NCBI RefSeq assembly: GCF_904846225.1
Contig: NZ_CAJGZJ010000002.1
Span: 124,001-188,000, forward strand
Origin: Psychrobacter immobilis
GTDB lineage: Bacteria > Pseudomonadota > Gammaproteobacteria > Pseudomonadales > Moraxellaceae
Direction: 5' to 3'
Length of the DNA: 64,000 bases
The position numbers and the translations under genes are program-made. This document shows positions 8,976 through 16,233 of this stretch, piece after piece. Under the pieces are notes generated by a model. It saw only the letters and a program-made list of their open reading frames with translations, did not search any database and was not told where the DNA came from. The number at the start of each line of letters is the position of its first letter. Positions within the stretch are counted from its first letter, which is position 1.

Positions 8976-9320
8976 TTAGTATGTTGAGACATGCTCTGAA
9001 TCTTCAGTTCCGTCTAACACTTCTGAATCATCGGCAGTCGCCACTGCTACATCGTCATTAGCATCAACGGCCACACCGTCGTCAGCGCTGGCTACAGCAA
9101 CATCGTCACCTGCCGTCGCAACACTGCTATCACCCGCTGTCGCGACACCACTGGCTTCATCTTCTACTGTCGTCTGAGCATCAACAGGCGATTCCGTTTC
9201 CATCGGCGCCTCATCTTTTTTGCCGCAAGCACTTAACGTCAACGCTGCTGCGACCAATCCAACTGTCAGCCAGTGCTTATAACCGCTGTCTTTTTTGATG
9301 TTGCTATTTTTCATAGTCAT
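8976..9320 (-). CDS. Small acidic repeat lipoprotein
   Basis: The function is not recognised. The 114-aa protein has a basic N-terminus, a hydrophobic segment and a lipobox LTLSAC at about residues 27-32, so it should be exported and lipidated. The rest is almost entirely Ala, Val, Asp, Thr, Ser and Glu, with degenerate repeats of the type VATAGDD, VAVASADDG, VAVDANDD, VAVATADD (about residues 59-95). No Cys follows the lipidation site and there is no recognisable fold; an extended, highly acidic surface tail is likely. It stands alone between the ABC cluster and proA. It could bind cations or act as a spacer, but nothing in the sequence proves this. Confidence 0.75.
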   Translation of the reverse strand: MTMKNSNIKKDSGYKHWLTVGLVAAALTLSACGKKDEAPMETESPVDAQTTVEDEASGVATAGDSSVATAGDDVAVASADDGVAVDANDDVAVATADDSEVLDGTEDSEHVSTY

Positions 9321-9790
9321 TTCAATTTCCCATTCTTATTTAACATACTTAATTGATATTTTTTATGAGTAGTCATTTATCTATTAAAGGCTTTCACTTA
9401 TCGTCTTAGCATTCAAAATCTTAGAATTCAAAATCTCAACATTCACAGTCTTGGCATTTACTATACTCATGAATAATCATGGCTACCTTAGTATTTACAA
9501 AGCAGTTCTGTTAAAGCACGTAACGACAAATTTAGCGTTTGTCTGTTATGTCAATGACGGCTACATTATGAGAAGCATAGGATACAATCAAAATGACGGC
9601 TGTATAAAGTAGCCGATAAACGCCTTTTAAAACGAGCGCTGTTCACAAAACCATCTTTACTATCATGCCAATCTCCTCTATGTTAAATAGCATAATGCCG
9701 TATTGGTGTTTAAACCTTCTTTTTGCTAAATTTTCGCCTTTTTTGGCGCTTTTTCTGTTTAAAACATTTATTACATAAGGAAAATAATTG
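9321..9790. other. 470-bp intergenic region before proA
   Basis: Contains the four-unit 15-bp tandem array at 9405-9464 and otherwise AT-rich sequence that must hold the divergent promoters of the acidic lipoprotein and proA. No gene seen. Confidence 0.55.
9405..9464. repeat. Tandem array, 4 x 15 bp
   Basis: Four successive 15-bp units with no spacers: CTTAGCATTCAAAAT, CTTAGAATTCAAAAT, CTCAACATTCACAGT, CTTGGCATTTACTAT. The first two differ at one base; the last two are more diverged. Confidence 0.8.
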
Positions 9791-11092
9791 ATGAGTCAAT
9801 CTAATATCACAGACGTTACCGAATATATGCAATCTGTCGGCAAACAAGCACGAGCCGCCTCACGCGCCCTCGCAGCTGCCAACACTGGCGATAAAAATTC
9901 AGCGTTAATGGCAATTTATGATGTGTTAAAAAATGCCAAGCAAGATATTTTGGCTGCCAACAAAATCGATATGGATAATGGTCAAAATAACGATCTAGAC
10001 GCCGCCTTACTTGATCGTCTCGAACTAAATGACGCGCGCTTCGACGGTATGTTACAGGGTCTAAAAGACGTATCAACACTGCCCGATCCTATCGGTGAAG
10101 TCACTGATATGACCTATCAGCCATCAGGTATTCACTTAGGCAAAATGCGCGTACCACTCGGCGTGGTCGGCATGATTTATGAGTCGCGTCCTAACGTAAC
10201 GTTAGAAGCCGCCTCATTGGCGCTAAAATCAGGCAACGCGATTATATTACGTGGAGGTTCTGAAGCGTTTGAATCCAATCAAGCGATTGCCAAATGTATC
10301 TTGGAAGGTTTACAGAAAGTCGGTCTGTCTGAGCATAGCGTACAAGTATTACAAACGACCGATCGCGCCGCTGTCGGTGAGCTTATTACCATGACTGACT
10401 ATGTTGATGTCATCGTACCACGTGGCGGCAAAGGCCTCATCGCACGTATCAGTCGTGATGCCCGTGTCCCTGTGATTAAGCATTTAGATGGCAATTGTCA
10501 TACGTTTATTGATAGTGATGCTGATCCTGAAATTGCCGTGAAAGTAAGTGTTAACGCAAAAACCCATCGCTATGGCACTTGTAATACCATGGAGACGCTA
10601 TTGGTCGATGAATCAGTCGCAGGCGAGCTATTACCAAAGATTGCTGAAGCGATCATTGCCGCTGATGATGCGATGCAATTACGCCTTGATGACAAGTCTC
10701 AAGCTATCCTAAATGACAACTCAACGCTAAAAGGTCATCTATCTGCCGCGACTGCGGAGGATTGGGATACCGAATATCTAGCGCCTATCTTAGCCGTAAA
10801 AGTGGTGTCAGGTATTGACGAGGCGATTGAACATATCAATACCCACGGTAGCCATCATACCGATGTCATCATTACTGACAACTATACCAAGTCTCAACGC
10901 TTCATTCGCGAAGTAGATTCTGCAAGCGTGATGATTAACGCCTCTAGCCGTTTTGCCGATGGTTTTGAGTATGGACTTGGTGCTGAAATTGGTATCTCCA
11001 CTGACAAAATACATGCCCGTGGCCCTGTTGGACTTGAAGGGTTAACCTCACAAAAATGGATAGTTTATGGTCATGGTGAGACACGCGCTTAA
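9791..11092 (+). CDS. proA: Gamma-glutamyl phosphate reductase
   Basis: Reduces gamma-glutamyl phosphate to glutamate semialdehyde with NADPH, the second step of proline synthesis, in the cytoplasm. The 433-aa product spans the ProA/aldehyde dehydrogenase fold: [47 protein letters not shown], the catalytic Cys region [15 protein letters not shown], and [19 protein letters not shown] at the C-terminus. ATG at 9791 is chosen; AAGGA lies 9 bases upstream, and a TTG one codon earlier is less likely. proB is not adjacent, so the gene is monocistronic, ending at a strong terminator. Confidence 0.97.
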
Positions 11093-11156: not shown

Positions 11157-11189
11157 AAAAAAACGTCAGCTCAATTGCTGACGTTTTTT
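11157..11189 (+). terminator. Rho-independent terminator of proA
   Basis: AAAAAACGTCAGC, a 6-base loop, GCTGACGTTTTTT: a strong stem with a T-run, 64 bp after the proA stop. Confidence 0.9.
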
Positions 11190-11309: not shown

Positions 11310-12071
11310 ATGCAGAGTGGTGAAATTAAGTATTGGAATCAAGACAAAGGTTACGGCTTTATCAATGTGGATAATCAAAGCGAAGACGTGTTTTTTCATG
11401 TGAGTAAAGTGCGTTTGTCACAGCCTATTACCGTTGGTCAAAAAGTCTACTTCAATAGCGAACGTAACGCTGAAAACCAGTTAAGAGCCACAGAATTGAC
11501 GTCCTCTTCACTCAGTATACAAGATGACATTGCAACAGATGTGCCCAAACGTTCATCCGATAATACTAGCCATAATCACCACTCTCAGAACACTCAAAGC
11601 CATCAACATTCTCAAAACAGTCGCCGCGACGGGCAATCCCAAAAAAGTCCTTTCTCTACCTTATTTATTCTCGTTGCCATTATCGCTGTCGCAGTTTATT
11701 TCTTTGGGGATTTAAAGTCCACTTTTTTTGCTGGTAGTGCTGAATCAGCGACGCTATCGCAATCATCATCTGATAACTTAAGCCCAACCGCTACTGCTGG
11801 CATAACGGGTGATAGGCAAATAGACGATACCATCACCTTGATTCAACAAGGCGGGCCGTATCCTTATCCTAATAAAGATGGCACGACATTTTATAATCGT
11901 GAAGGCACTCTACCAGCGCAGTCACAAGGCTACTACCGCGAATATACCGTTCCGACACCGGGGCTTTCGCATCGCGGCGCGCGGCGTATCGTCACTGGCG
12001 GTAATCCCCCAACTGTCTACTATCTGACGGTTGATCATTACGAGAGCTTTAGTCAATTGCAGGTAAAATAA
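11310..12071 (+). CDS. Cold-shock domain / transmembrane / guanyl-specific RNase (RNase Sa-type) fusion
   Basis: Three parts are visible in 253 aa. Residues 1-65 are a cold-shock domain (GEIKYWNQDKGYGFINV is RNP1-like; DVFFHVS is RNP2-like). Residues 66-114 are a polar His/Gln/Asn/Ser linker. Residues 115-133 are one hydrophobic segment, preceded by RRDGQSQK, so N-in/C-out topology is likely. Residues 165-253 match microbial guanyl-specific RNases such as RNase Sa: GGPYPYPNKDGTTFYNRE, YYREYTVPTPG, RGARRIVTGG and DHYESFS. The RNase Sa catalytic residues have counterparts Glu211, Arg222, Arg226 and His243. No Cys is present, unlike the disulfide-bonded RNase Sa. The next gene, 1 bp away, is a barstar homologue. 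Function as a membrane-anchored, outward-facing RNase effector is inferred. Confidence 0.85.
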   Translation: MQSGEIKYWNQDKGYGFINVDNQSEDVFFHVSKVRLSQPITVGQKVYFNSERNAENQLRATELTSSSLSIQDDIATDVPKRSSDNTSHNHHSQNTQSHQHSQNSRRDGQSQKSPFSTLFILVAIIAVAVYFFGDLKSTFFAGSAESATLSQSSSDNLSPTATAGITGDRQIDDTITLIQQGGPYPYPNKDGTTFYNREGTLPAQSQGYYREYTVPTPGLSHRGARRIVTGGNPPTVYYLTVDHYESFSQLQVK

Positions 12072-12072
12072 A

Positions 12073-12447
12073 ATGAGCCAAGCCATCTATTATCTTGAGC
12101 CGCACGACATCGATCAAAATCACATTAACCAAAACGGTACAGCTCAAAGTGCTAACATTCCTTCACAGGCTGTTAACATACCTGTAGGTGACGTACTAAA
12201 TAAAACCACATTATTGCAAAGTTTAGCAAACGTCTGTGATTTTCCCAGCTACTTCTCAGCTAACTGGGACAGCGCATGGGACTGCTTGACGGACAGCGCA
12301 GTGACTCATTTAACGCTGAATTTAACAGCAGTAAAAGAGATAAATACCGAAGATTTTGATGTCTTTAAACGCATTATTGAAGATGCCTACAGAGATTTTG
12401 GCAAGCCGCAATTGTGGGTTATTATGCCGCCTGCGGATGATGTTTAA
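12073..12447 (+). CDS. Barstar-family ribonuclease inhibitor
   Basis: Barstar proteins bind and block the active site of barnase-type RNases in the cytoplasm. The C-terminal two thirds (about residues 40-121) match the family: LLQSLANVCDFPSYFSANWD, then WDCLTD, a beta strand LTLNL and LWVIMPP at the end. Asp66 and Asp70 correspond to barstar Asp35 and Asp39, the latter being the main contact to the RNase catalytic site. The first 38 residues include a polar Asn/Gln-rich stretch not typical of barstar. Only one base separates its ATG from the stop of the RNase fusion gene, so translation is coupled; cognate inhibition is strongly suggested but not shown. Confidence 0.88.
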   Translation: MSQAIYYLEPHDIDQNHINQNGTAQSANIPSQAVNIPVGDVLNKTTLLQSLANVCDFPSYFSANWDSAWDCLTDSAVTHLTLNLTAVKEINTEDFDVFKRIIEDAYRDFGKPQLWVIMPPADDV

Positions 12448-12561: not shown

Positions 12562-12589
12562 CAATCATTTGTATAGGAAGGATTCACAT

Positions 12590-13864
12590 ATGGAAATTAC
12601 CTTAAACGGCTATTACACGCTGATATTAGCCACCTTAGTGCTGTTACTTGGGCGCTTTTTGGTTAAAAAGATTAAGTTCTTAGAAGACTTTAACATTCCA
12701 GAGCCCGTGGCTGGTGGTTTGGTTGCCGCCATTATCATTTACTCGCTTAACATAATTTGGGGTTATACTTTTAACTTTCACCAAGGATTGCAGACAGCAA
12801 CCATGCTGATGTTCTTTGCCTCCATTGGGTTAAGTGCTGATTTTGGTAAGCTGAAAGCAGGCGGGACACCCTTGTTAATTTTCACCATTGTGGTGTCCGT
12901 ATTTATTGTATTGCAGGACGCTGTTGGGGTAGGAATGGCAAGCGCATTGGGACTGGATCCGCTGCTCGGCTTGGTCACAGGCTCTATCGCGCTGACTGGT
13001 GGACACGGTACCGCTGGCGCATGGGGCACTGTATTAGAGCAAGAGTATGGTGTGGTTGGCGCAACGACTCTTGGTATCGCAGTGGCAACCTATGGTTTGG
13101 TCGCAGGGGGAATCATCGGTGGGCCTGTTGCTCGTAAATTGATTCAACAGCTTGGTTTAAAACCTACACCTGACAATCCAAATCCAAGCGACGTTGAAAA
13201 ACTTGCCAATCAACAGTCATTATATAGCACCAAACATGACGAAGATGCAGGGCACGAACATGGAGAAATGTTTGAAAAACCGGATAACATTCGTCTGATT
13301 ACTGCCTCTTCTACTATCGAATCATTGGCATTATTCGCCGCCGCGTTGGCTTTTGCAGATGGTATGACCATCCTTGCAGAAGGCACTTGGTTGGAATTGC
13401 CTACCTTCGTTTGGGCACTGGCAGCTGGCGTAATTATCCGCAATTCACTGACTCTTATTTTCAATTTTGATATGTTTGACCGTGCTATTGATGTGATTGG
13501 TAATGCCTCTTTGAGTCTGTTTTTGGCGATGGCATTATTGTCATTGAAGCTATGGGAATTGACGGATTTGGCCGGCCCTGTACTGATTATTTTACTGGTA
13601 CAGACCTTTGTCATGATCCTCTATGTTTACTTTGTCACCTTTAAAGTGATGGGCAAAAACTACGATGCAGCGGTACTGTCAGCAGGTCATTGTGGTTTTG
13701 GTATGGGCGCGACGCCAACGGCGATTGCCAATATGCAGGCAGTCACGGACCGTTATCTGCCATCACCTAAAGCGTTCTTAATTGTGCCGATGGTTGGTGC
13801 TTTCTTTGTCGATATCGTCAATGCGACGGTATTGCAGATATTTACCAAGTTGCCGTTTATGTGA
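12590..13864 (+). CDS. gltS: Sodium/glutamate symporter
   Basis: GltS imports glutamate with Na+ across the inner membrane. The product has about 424 aa with two inverted halves of hydrophobic helices. Recognisable segments are FLEDFNIPEPVAGGLVAA near the N-terminus, the re-entrant loop GLVTGSIALTGGHGTAGAWG, and the matching second-half loop SAGHCGFGMGATPTAIANMQ. A central hydrophilic loop of about 60 residues (His/Glu/Asp-rich) separates the halves. The ATG at 12590 has GGAAGGA a few bases upstream; an in-frame ATG 21 bp earlier has none. The gene stands alone and ends in a strong terminator. Confidence 0.95.
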   Translation: MEITLNGYYTLILATLVLLLGRFLVKKIKFLEDFNIPEPVAGGLVAAIIIYSLNIIWGYTFNFHQGLQTATMLMFFASIGLSADFGKLKAGGTPLLIFTIVVSVFIVLQDAVGVGMASALGLDPLLGLVTGSIALTGGHGTAGAWGTVLEQEYGVVGATTLGIAVATYGLVAGGIIGGPVARKLIQQLGLKPTPDNPNPSDVEKLANQQSLYSTKHDEDAGHEHGEMFEKPDNIRLITASSTIESLALFAAALAFADGMTILAEGTWLELPTFVWALAAGVIIRNSLTLIFNFDMFDRAIDVIGNASLSLFLAMALLSLKLWELTDLAGPVLIILLVQTFVMILYVYFVTFKVMGKNYDAAVLSAGHCGFGMGATPTAIANMQAVTDRYLPSPKAFLIVPMVGAFFVDIVNATVLQIFTKLPFM

Positions 13865-14184: not shown

Positions 14185-16233
14185 ATGTTCTTTAATCCGA
14201 TTTTATCAAAACTGAGCATCAGCATCGCTCTAGCAATAACTGTATTTGCACAAAATGCTTGGGCGGATGATTCATTGACTGAGATATGTAAAAAGCCACC
14301 CGTAGCAAACTACGATAGCATTGATTGTTTGAATGAGGGATTAGCGAGAGTAATGCGCACCACCTTTGAAAGCCCATATACTGGCGAGAAATATGGTTAT
14401 ATCAATGCCTCAGGACAGATCGTTTTACCACTGCAATATGATAAAGCTGAGTCTTTCCAAGAAGGTCTAGCGGCTGTCGCGACATCTCGCCCATTGGCAA
14501 ATATAGTTATGCTACATAAATGGGGCTTTATTGATAAAACCGGAAAAATTATCGCATTATTACAATATGAAAATGTTGATTCTTTTTCTGAAGGCTTAGC
14601 TATGGTTGAGAGAAATGGTAGGCACGGATTTATCAATGAAACTGGAGAGGAAGTCATCTCACTACAATATAGCCAAGCTAGTTCTTTTTCTGAAGGCTTG
14701 GCTGGTGTTGAAAAGGATGACAAATGGGGATTTATTGATAAAACAGGAAAAATTATTATTCCCATGCAATATGAACGTGTCTATGAGTTTTCTGAAGGCT
14801 TAGCTCTTGTCGAAAATGAAGATAAATATGGCTTTATTAATCGACAAGGCGACGAGGTTATCCCTTTAAAATACGGCGATGCAACCTCTTTTAGTGAGGG
14901 ATTAGCCAGTGTATCCATGACTGAACGCTGTCCCTCCTCAGATAATAATTATGGATTTATTGATAAAAAAGGAGATTTTGTCATTCCAAAGCAGTTTGAT
15001 AGCGCTTACTCTTTTGAGCAGGGTATCGCACGGGTAGAAAAAGAGGACAAATGGAGTCTTATTGACTCAAGTGGCAATAAGATTACTCCTATACAGTACA
15101 GTGCTATTGAATTTTTCGATGAAGGTCTAGCCCGCGTTGAGAAAGACTATAAATTCGGTTTTATTAATAGGGCCGGTTACGAAATCATACCCACAAAATA
15201 TGATTCTGTTGAAGACTTTAGTCAGGGATTAGTCATCGTCACTAGAGAAGAAAAAAAGGGCGTTATTAATAGTGCAGGAAAGGTCATTGTGGCTGTAGAA
15301 TTTGACAATATCTCGCACACTGCCGACGGTATTATACATATCTCTCAAGCAGGCAAATCTGGCTTTTTAGATGCGTCAGGCAACGTCATCTCTCCACCAC
15401 AATACGATGAGGCTGGTGTGTTTATTGAGGGTCTAGCGTGGGTTAAAAAGGGCGATAAATATGGTTTCATTGACAAACTAGGTAACGCCGTTATCCCTCT
15501 GCAATATGAAAAAGTTTTAGACTTTAATGAAGGCCTAGCTCCTGTCACTAAAAACGGTAAATCAGGGTTTATAGATACGGCAGGCGCTATCGTAATTCCT
15601 CTACAATATGACTATACTTGGCATTTTGATAAAAGCTTATTGGCAGTTGATATAGAAGATATGATGGGACTAATCAATAAATTTGGCCAAGTGGTCATAC
15701 CTTTAGAATACGATAATATTGGTATGTTTGAAGCGGGCTTGGCGCCCGCTAAAAAAGACGGATTATGGGGCTTTATTGATACTGAAAATAAAACCGTTAT
15801 TCCCTTTAAATACGATAAGGTTGAGCCTTTTATCGATAACATCGCTCTTGTCACCAAAAATGATCAGGTAGGCTTGGTAGATAAATTGGGTAAAGAGATT
15901 GTACCAGTACAGTTCAGTGATCTTAAGTTTTTAGATTTGACGTATATTAATTTTTTGGATGAAGATATAGAAGGTTCTACGACCTTTAAATTAGAAGACG
16001 AGCAAGGTAATACTCTAGCTATAGTAGATAACAAAACGAAATTTTCAGAAGATAGCTTATGGTACTTTGAAGGAGACATCACTGGTGTGAAACAAGACGC
16101 GCAGTTAGGATATCTCGATAATGACATCGCCATTATTCCGCAGAACCAAGACGCTATAAAGCCTTTTAATAAAGGCGTCATACTTGTTAAAAAAGACGGT
16201 CGGAGATTTTACATCAAAGCAGAAATGAACTGA
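14185..16233 (+). CDS. Exported WG-repeat protein
   Basis: A 682-aa protein with an N-terminal signal peptide (ISIALAITVFAQNAWA, about residues 12-27) and then about 15 tandem copies of a roughly 34-residue WG/KWG repeat. A typical unit is WGFIDKTGKIIIPMQYERV followed by an EFSEGLALVENED-type end. The repeats form short beta units and usually mediate binding; no catalytic motif is seen. Repeats 9, 12 and 13 are the most degenerate, and unit 5 carries an insertion with a Cys. The last about 110 residues depart from the pattern (FLDLTYINFLDEDIEG) before a final partial unit. There is no clear Shine-Dalgarno before the ATG. Partner unknown; location is probably periplasm or surface. Confidence 0.85.
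   Translation: MFFNPILSKLSISIALAITVFAQNAWADDSLTEICKKPPVANYDSIDCLNEGLARVMRTTFESPYTGEKYGYINASGQIVLPLQYDKAESFQEGLAAVATSRPLANIVMLHKWGFIDKTGKIIALLQYENVDSFSEGLAMVERNGRHGFINETGEEVISLQYSQASSFSEGLAGVEKDDKWGFIDKTGKIIIPMQYERVYEFSEGLALVENEDKYGFINRQGDEVIPLKYGDATSFSEGLASVSMTERCPSSDNNYGFIDKKGDFVIPKQFDSAYSFEQGIARVEKEDKWSLIDSSGNKITPIQYSAIEFFDEGLARVEKDYKFGFINRAGYEIIPTKYDSVEDFSQGLVIVTREEKKGVINSAGKVIVAVEFDNISHTADGIIHISQAGKSGFLDASGNVISPPQYDEAGVFIEGLAWVKKGDKYGFIDKLGNAVIPLQYEKVLDFNEGLAPVTKNGKSGFIDTAGAIVIPLQYDYTWHFDKSLLAVDIEDMMGLINKFGQVVIPLEYDNIGMFEAGLAPAKKDGLWGFIDTENKTVIPFKYDKVEPFIDNIALVTKNDQVGLVDKLGKEIVPVQFSDLKFLDLTYINFLDEDIEGSTTFKLEDEQGNTLAIVDNKTKFSEDSLWYFEGDITGVKQDAQLGYLDNDIAIIPQNQDAIKPFNKGVILVKKDGRRFYIKAEMN

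What the first reader, a model, noticed from the sequence alone, without database searches (positions are those of the whole stretch)
11310..12447. Cold-shock domain fused to a membrane-anchored RNase Sa-type domain, with an adjacent barstar-like inhibitor
The sequence shows an N-terminal cold-shock domain, a polar His/Gln-rich linker, one transmembrane segment and a C-terminal guanyl-specific RNase domain that keeps the counterparts of the RNase Sa catalytic residues (Glu211, Arg222, Arg226, His243). The next gene, one base downstream, is a barstar homologue with both key Asp residues. Known barnase/barstar and RNase Sa/Sai pairs use a simple signal peptide, not a cold-shock domain. Positive residues before the membrane segment suggest the RNase faces outward while the cold-shock domain binds nucleic acid inside. 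It could be an antibacterial effector with immunity, or a temperature- or RNA-linked regulator. I do not know of a described system of this architecture.
Basis: partly seen in the sequence, partly recalled or inferred. Interest (0 to 1): 0.85.

Follow-up and report, generated by a model that had tools for sequence, protein, structure and literature searches.

The report
Cold-shock domain fused to membrane-anchored RNase
In bacteria of the genus Psychrobacter, one gene joins a cold-shock-type nucleic-acid-binding domain to an RNA-cutting-type domain through a predicted membrane segment, and the next gene, one base later, encodes a barstar-type RNase-inhibitor homologue; the RNA-cutting half likely sits outside the inner membrane while the inhibitor would protect the inside, an arrangement for which my literature searches found no description.

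Summary
ORF 11310-12071 has a cold-shock domain (CSD), a linker, one hydrophobic segment and an RNase Sa-type domain, with the counterparts of RNase Sa E54, R65, R69 and H85 at 211, 222, 226 and 243. ORF 12073-12447 is a barstar. In 82 of 105 genomes of the genus the RNase domain has barstar sequence beside it (proA found upstream in 74 of 82, gltS downstream in 69 of 82). The full-length fusion is open in 76 of 82; all 76 keep the catalytic residues and more positive charge before the membrane segment. CSD and RNase are equally constrained (dN/dS 0.057 and 0.049). It is a fixed chromosomal pair, not a polymorphic toxin. The CSD fusion also occurs in two genomes of another family (one matches a Cardiobacteriaceae protein); one of these lacks any detectable barstar. 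Relatives elsewhere are RNases behind one N-terminal hydrophobic segment, without CSD, mostly beside a barstar. Best reading: an inner-membrane RNase with its active domain outside, a cytosolic CSD, and barstar guarding the cytosol. Topology, activity, inhibition and the CSD's role are untested. Databases already list both domains; I found no paper on the system.

The parts
11310..12071 (+). CSD - linker - membrane segment - RNase Sa-type fusion ORF (253 aa)
   Evidence: ORF; Pfam PF00313 + PF00545
11310..11507 (+). cold-shock domain, residues 1-66, with KGYGFI (13-18) and VFFH (27-30) motifs
   Evidence: Pfam 3-64; block-mean pLDDT 92-96 for 1-60; Foldseek to cold-shock proteins
11508..11648 (+). 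polar His/Gln/Ser/Asn-rich linker, residues 67-113, predicted disordered
   Evidence: pLDDT under 50 for 71-114; median dN/dS 0.335
11649..11711 (+). predicted single membrane segment, residues 114-134
   Evidence: mean hydropathy 2.48 over 19 residues; K+R 3 before, 1 after in this protein; low model confidence
11712..11804 (+). Ser/Thr-rich linker, residues 135-165
   Evidence: pLDDT under 50 for 132-161; median dN/dS 0.388
11805..12068 (+). RNase Sa-type domain, residues 166-253; E211, R222, R226, H243
   Evidence: PF00545; RNase Sa3 E 4.3e-23; Foldseek RNase Sa rmsd 0.9
12073..12447 (+). barstar homologue (124 aa), D66 and D70 = barstar D35 and D39
   Evidence: PF01337; alignment to barstar; Foldseek to barstars E 5.3e-4
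11162..11189 (+). inverted repeat (11162-11185) followed by a T run, a likely terminator of proA separating it from the pair (read by eye)
   Evidence: sequence; not reported by the scan
9788..11092 (+). proA, upstream neighbour
   Evidence: NCBIfam proA; found upstream of the pair in 74 of 82 loci
12569..13864 (+). gltS, downstream neighbour
   Evidence: NCBIfam gltS; found downstream of the pair in 69 of 82 loci

Best explanation
The gene pair encodes a protein with an N-terminal cold-shock domain and a C-terminal RNase Sa-type domain joined through one predicted membrane segment, plus a barstar homologue whose start codon lies one base after the RNase stop codon; the fusion likely spans the inner membrane with the cold-shock domain in the cytosol and the RNase in the periplasm, where it would cut RNA, while the barstar would likely neutralise any RNase copy not yet exported. 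Shown by sequence: the domains, the catalytic and inhibitor residues, the adjacency, the fixed locus and the purifying selection. Inferred: orientation, RNase activity, binding by barstar, and coupled translation. Inferred and least certain: the cold-shock domain would bind single-stranded RNA or DNA at the inner face (perhaps its own message), tethering the RNase or tuning how much of it is made. It would not present substrate to the RNase, because the two ends would lie in different compartments.
For: Domains over curated cut-offs. Catalytic E, R, R, H in 76 of 76 full-length fusions. More K+R in the 20 residues before than after the membrane segment in 76 of 76, means 5.3 and 0.4. Median dN/dS CSD 0.057, RNase 0.049, linkers 0.335 and 0.388. 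RNase stop to barstar start exactly 1 nt in 74 of 82 by script; two more have an ATG at +1 although the script took an upstream TTG. NWDxx[WY]D in 81 of 82 barstar sequences. Unfused relatives have one N-terminal hydrophobic segment before the RNase (by eye), and a barstar lies within 1000 nt downstream in 16 of 17 unfused family, order and class loci and in 77 of 80 genome-contig loci. G007 lost the CSD in frame and kept membrane segment, RNase and barstar. G1088 keeps an intact fusion without a detectable barstar, which fits an RNase normally outside the cytosol.
Against: No activity, binding or topology data. The membrane segment has low AlphaFold confidence. G1088 shows that barstar can be missing beside an intact fusion, which weakens the idea that it must guard the cytosol. 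No promoter, stress or cold-response evidence was obtained; the promoter scan gave no more sites (4) than shuffles (mean 3.9). The CSD's function is a guess: five of 76 fusions carry one substitution in its binding motifs, and three loci (G045, G098, G075) have the N-terminal part broken while the RNase domain stays open.
Confidence: 0.55

Rival explanations
1. Both ends stay in the cytosol (segment not inserted N-in/C-out), and the pair works as an RNA-targeted toxin-antitoxin or regulator: the cold-shock domain brings RNA to the RNase, and barstar gates it.
For: The only inhibitor is predicted cytosolic and barstar sequence lies beside the RNase domain in 82 of 82 genus loci. CSD and RNase are equally constrained. 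Of 20 emptied sites read, four hold barstar-like remnants and only one of these also an RNase remnant, as if the RNase decays first.
Against: Strong positive-inside signal in 76 of 76 and a clear hydrophobic segment. G1088 has the fusion and no detectable barstar. Unfused relatives have N-terminal export-type segments (by eye).
Confidence: 0.15
2. An antibacterial effector with immunity: the RNase domain is released or delivered to neighbours, and barstar protects the producer.
For: Barnase-type domains with barstar immunity are described in polymorphic toxins (PMC3482391, passages seen). PF00545 lies in very large open frames in G072 (1469 aa) and G148 (2144 aa) of the same family.
Against: Fixed locus beside proA and gltS, a conserved rather than polymorphic RNase domain, no phage match, and no plasmid record covering more than 37% of the protein.
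Confidence: 0.1
3. A membrane-held scavenging RNase in which the cold-shock domain is only a passive cytosolic tail.
For: Natural loss of the CSD in G007, and broken N-terminal parts in G045, G098 and G075, with the RNase domain kept.
Against: CSD dN/dS 0.057, as low as the RNase domain, and binding motifs intact in 71 of 76.
Confidence: 0.15
4. Prediction artefact: two neighbouring genes read as one frame.
For: None found.
Against: 76 of 82 genus loci have the uninterrupted fused frame, and the same fusion is seen in two genomes of another family.
Confidence: 0.01

Closest known systems
Barnase-barstar and RNase Sa with barstar-family inhibitors (simple RNase-inhibitor gene pairs)
   Same: RNase Sa-type domain with the same catalytic residues; barstar with both Asp; RNase-then-inhibitor gene order. 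PMC3482391 (passages) calls simple barnase-barstar pairs widely distributed.
   Different: Barnase is secreted (abstract of PMC8625414, listing); here a 113-residue part with a cold-shock domain precedes a membrane segment.
Unfused RNase + barstar pairs of beta- and gammaproteobacteria (e.g. L064, L098, L108, L110)
   Same: N-terminal hydrophobic segment, RNase, then barstar: 16 of 17 family, order and class loci and 77 of 80 genome-contig loci have a barstar within 1000 nt.
   Different: No cold-shock domain: 0 of 80 genome-contig loci have the CSD motif in the frame, and 13 of 14 class-sample hits other than G000 lack it (one of the 13, L106, is cut at a contig end).
CSD-DUF1294 membrane proteins (one in this genome, L002)
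   Same: N-terminal cold-shock domain followed by hydrophobic segments.
   Different: C-terminal part is DUF1294, not a nuclease. The search for CSD with DUF1294 found no paper.
CoCoNuT (McrBC-type) CSD-bearing systems predicted to target RNA
   Same: Cold-shock domain in a system with RNases (PMC11090510, passages).
   Different: There the CSD is on a GTPase; different architecture.

Membership tests
RNase Sa / PF00545 ribonuclease family | Profile match over the curated cut-off | tested here: met
   75.6 bits against 24
RNase Sa / PF00545 ribonuclease family | Catalytic Glu, Arg, Arg, His | tested here: met
   E211, R222, R226, H243 align with 54, 65, 69, 85; conserved in 76 of 76. That these are the catalytic residues is recalled.
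RNase Sa / PF00545 ribonuclease family | Guanyl-specific RNase activity | not testable with these tools
   needs an assay
Barstar (PF01337) | Profile match and barstar fold | tested here: met
   43.6 bits against 23.4; Foldseek to barstars E 5.3e-4
Barstar (PF01337) | DxxxD interface motif | tested here: met
   D66/D70; motif in 81 of 82
Barstar (PF01337) | Binds and inhibits the cognate RNase | not testable with these tools
   needs a binding assay
Simple RNase-barstar gene pair | Inhibitor gene directly beside the RNase gene | tested here: met
   82 of 82 genus loci and L099; not met in L235/G1088
Simple RNase-barstar gene pair | Nothing but an export segment N-terminal of the RNase | tested here: not met
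   CSD plus linker before the membrane segment
Cold-shock domain (PF00313) | Profile match and KGYGFI / VFFH binding motifs | tested here: met
   47.8 bits against 27; motifs intact in 71 of 76
Stand-alone cold-shock proteins | Single-domain protein meeting a CspA/CspD-type equivalog cut-off | tested here: not met
   best NCBIfam 43.3 bits against 115.4; 253 aa
Polymorphic toxin / contact-dependent effector | Variable C-terminal toxin on a delivery part; delivery machinery | tested here: not met
   conserved RNase domain, fixed locus, four ordinary neighbours
Type II toxin-antitoxin | Cytosolic toxin with antitoxin | tested here: inconclusive
   membrane segment and charge bias argue against a cytosolic toxin; no experiment

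The most novel reading that the evidence does not exclude
A transmembrane RNA device: a cytosolic cold-shock domain senses or grips RNA on one side of the inner membrane, and its occupancy sets how much of a barstar-guarded RNase is deployed on the other side, coupling the cell's own RNA or cold state to RNA destruction outside the cytosol.
Probability: 0.15. Interest if true: 0.8.

Novelty: new variant of a known kind. Interest (0 to 1): 0.5.

Why it matters
Barnase-barstar is a textbook RNase-inhibitor pair, but what such RNases do for Gram-negative cells is, as far as I know, little studied. Here the pair is a fixed chromosomal gene pair in most species of a genus, with a nucleic-acid-binding domain, predicted cytosolic, under the same constraint as the RNase itself. 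If the predicted orientation is right, one protein handles nucleic acid on both sides of the inner membrane. The natural variants (CSD lost in G007, barstar absent in G1088) point to direct genetic tests of what each part is for.

Tried and rejected
Effector/immunity reading: rejected as the main reading because of the fixed locus, low RNase-domain dN/dS and lack of matching mobile carriers. Defence-system reading: the PADLOC scan gave only a CSD model (CSD_V, 33.9 bits) for the fusion and nothing for the barstar. Gene-fusion artefact: rejected. Single origin of the CSD fusion: of 76 RNase domains assembled, 10 (all unfused) were dropped because my motif missed them; the tree of the other 66 (23 fused, 43 not) needs three changes of the label, and a single clade is not rejected (AU p 0.312). 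Its 88 columns are few, and two unfused rows on a long branch (L138, a Halomonas record, and L108) fall inside the Psychrobacter group. The barstar motif used was too strict; one search replaced it with a profile built from alignment A2 (which itself contains eight of the unfused loci and L099). Regulation: promoter scan no better than shuffles. Papers: the searches returned none. Searches returned lists (20 of 26 shown, 15 of 37, 8 of 190), and no title or abstract start shown describes this architecture. I saw passages of PMC3482391 and PMC11090510 and only listings of the rest.

Full report
What is in the sequence. The ORF at 11310-12071 encodes 253 residues with a cold-shock domain (PF00313, 47.8 bits) and a C-terminal ribonuclease domain (PF00545, 75.6 bits); the ORF at 12073-12447 encodes a barstar (PF01337, 43.6 bits), all over Pfam's cut-offs. 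The RNase domain aligns with RNase Sa3 at E 4.3e-23; counting along the printed RNase Sa alignment, E211, R222, R226 and H243 fall on positions 54, 65, 69 and 85. The barstar aligns weakly with solved barstars (E 0.028), with D66 and D70 on D35 and D39. AlphaFold2 on a 40-sequence alignment gives block-mean pLDDT 92-96 for residues 1-60 and 88-95 for 171-250, and under 50 for the linkers and part of the membrane segment (71-114, 116-121, 132-161). Foldseek finds RNase Sa structures (best E 1.7e-8, rmsd 0.9) and cold-shock proteins (best E 1.7e-5) in that one model, and barstars for the second ORF (best E 5.3e-4).

Distribution. The named close protein relatives are Psychrobacter; the 120 best of 1375 all carry both Pfam domains. 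Of 105 genomes held for the genus, 82 carry the RNase domain with barstar sequence beside it. In the family as a whole, PF00545 was found in 85 of 348 genomes: 83 of the genus (those 82 plus G072, a 1469-aa open frame), one unfused RNase with barstar (G337, L064) and one 2144-aa open frame (G148). A class sample gave 15 of 369 genomes with PF00545, the window's own included; of the 14 others, only L099 (G495) has a CSD (L106 is cut at a contig end). An order sample gave 14 of 390, eleven of them of the genus and the other three without CSD. In the order of G495, 3 of 32 genomes match, two of them CSD fusions, G495 and G1088, of one genus. Protein-database relatives with both domains outside the named Psychrobacter include P0122, named Cardiobacteriaceae bacterium TAE3-ERU3, and unnamed proteins P0121, P0123, P0133, P0135 and P0139. 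Of 80 genome-contig loci found with the L099 protein, 0 have the CSD motif in the same frame; that scan uses a few exact peptides and returned none of the known fusions, so its zero is no measure of absence. JGI already names relatives 'guanyl-specific ribonuclease Sa/cold shock CspA family protein', so the domain pair is visible in databases.

A fixed chromosomal pair. proA was found upstream on the same strand in 74 of 82 loci and gltS downstream in 69 of 82 (both in 67), as far as the sequence held allows (identities by NCBIfam). No phage record matches, and 15 plasmid records match the RNase part only, at most 37% of the protein. Among the 23 genomes without the pair, 20 sites beside proA were fetched: barstar-like remnants are found in 4 (G029, G064, G102, G103) and an RNase remnant in one of these, G103; the other 16 gave no match. 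Some remnants are short, and the E-values are for a small database.

Intactness and selection. The full-length fused frame is open in 76 of 82. The other six are G095 (contig end), G087 (run of N), G007 (in-frame loss of the CSD), and G045, G098 and G075 (stops or frameshifts in the N-terminal part). The C-terminal RNase part and barstar sequence remain in all six, although in G087 the N run reaches into the RNase domain and the G075 barstar is itself frameshifted. All 76 keep the four catalytic residues. CSD binding motifs are intact in 71 of 76 (70 by strict pattern plus one with an extra first Met); five have one substitution. Median dN/dS, by my own Nei-Gojobori script on pairs of moderate divergence, is 0.057 for the CSD (166 pairs), 0.049 for the RNase (173), 0.335 and 0.388 for the linkers (167 and 148), 0.091 for the barstar core (295) and 0.414 for its N-terminus (291). 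Pairs share ancestry, so these are descriptive.

Barstar coupling. The RNase stop and the barstar start are exactly 1 nt apart in 74 of 82 by script. Of the other eight, two have an ATG at +1 although the script took an upstream TTG, two have a gap of 0, one overlaps by 4, one is at +16, and two (G048, G075) are frameshifted in assemblies 84-85% complete. Coupled translation is an inference from this spacing. Among unfused relatives a barstar lies within 1000 nt downstream in 16 of 17 family, order and class loci (not L107) and in 77 of 80 genome-contig loci; of the three without, L177 and L179 hold only 709 and 98 nt downstream. For the CSD fusion outside the genus the link is not absolute: L099 has a barstar 2 nt downstream, but L235 (G1088), whose protein reads as identical to P0122 by eye, has a tRNA-like stretch downstream (by eye), no barstar beside it, and no PF01337 match at E 0.1 or better in a genome rated 100% complete. 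A very divergent inhibitor could be missed.

Orientation. In 76 of 76 fusions the 20 residues before the membrane segment hold more Lys and Arg than the 20 after it (means 5.3 and 0.4), and the segment's mean hydropathy is 1.85 or more. With no signal before the CSD, N-in/C-out is the natural prediction. I could not test it, nor exclude proteolytic release of the RNase.

How it most likely works. The common form of this RNase in beta- and gammaproteobacteria is one N-terminal hydrophobic segment and the RNase, beside a barstar. G007 shows that the Psychrobacter protein can revert to that form. So I read the system as an exported, membrane-held RNase whose inhibitor would protect the cytosol, to which a cytosolic nucleic-acid-binding domain was added. 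What that domain does is open; tethering to, or regulation by, RNA at the inner face is my guess. The cytosolic toxin-antitoxin, passive-tail and effector readings are kept as rivals at lower probability.

Novelty. PMC3482391 (passages) describes simple barnase-barstar pairs as widely distributed, so the pair itself is known. I found no paper on the CSD-membrane-RNase form in the open-access library by the searches (some lists capped); most subscription papers are not held. I rate it a new variant of a known kind.

Noticed in passing
window 12073-12180 and relatives (loci): The barstar N-terminus carries imperfect pentapeptide units such as IDQNH-INQNG; between species the alignment start shifts mostly in steps of 15 nt (2, 17, 32, 47, 62, 77) and the barstar length varies, under relaxed selection (median dN/dS 0.414).
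   Followed up: partly
G080 C110:20710-25042 (part in L205): A broken barstar remnant lies between proA and gltS, while an RNase-barstar pair lies after gltS in the same genome.
   Followed up: no
G072 C1:3105058-3105330 and G148 C2:42117-42365: PF00545 matches inside very large open frames (1469 and 2144 aa) in the same family, perhaps polymorphic toxins.
   Followed up: no
L002:1114-1776 (own genome, C2): A second CSD membrane-type fusion, CSD-DUF1294, in the same genome.
   Followed up: partly
L116, L117, L118, L119, L122 (Thauera and relatives): Unfused RNases whose N-terminal hydrophobic segment ends in a lipobox-like Cys (such as LVAC, LTAC), by eye; they may be lipoproteins.
   Followed up: no
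window 14185-16233: 682-aa protein with 13 WG-repeat stretches.
   Followed up: no
window 8976-9320 (- strand): 114-aa lipoprotein-like small protein with Asp/Ala-rich repeated units and no Pfam match at E 0.001.
   Followed up: no
P0124, P0126, P0130, P0137, P0140, P0144: Proteins with two or three RNase Sa-type domains in tandem, by eye.
   Followed up: no
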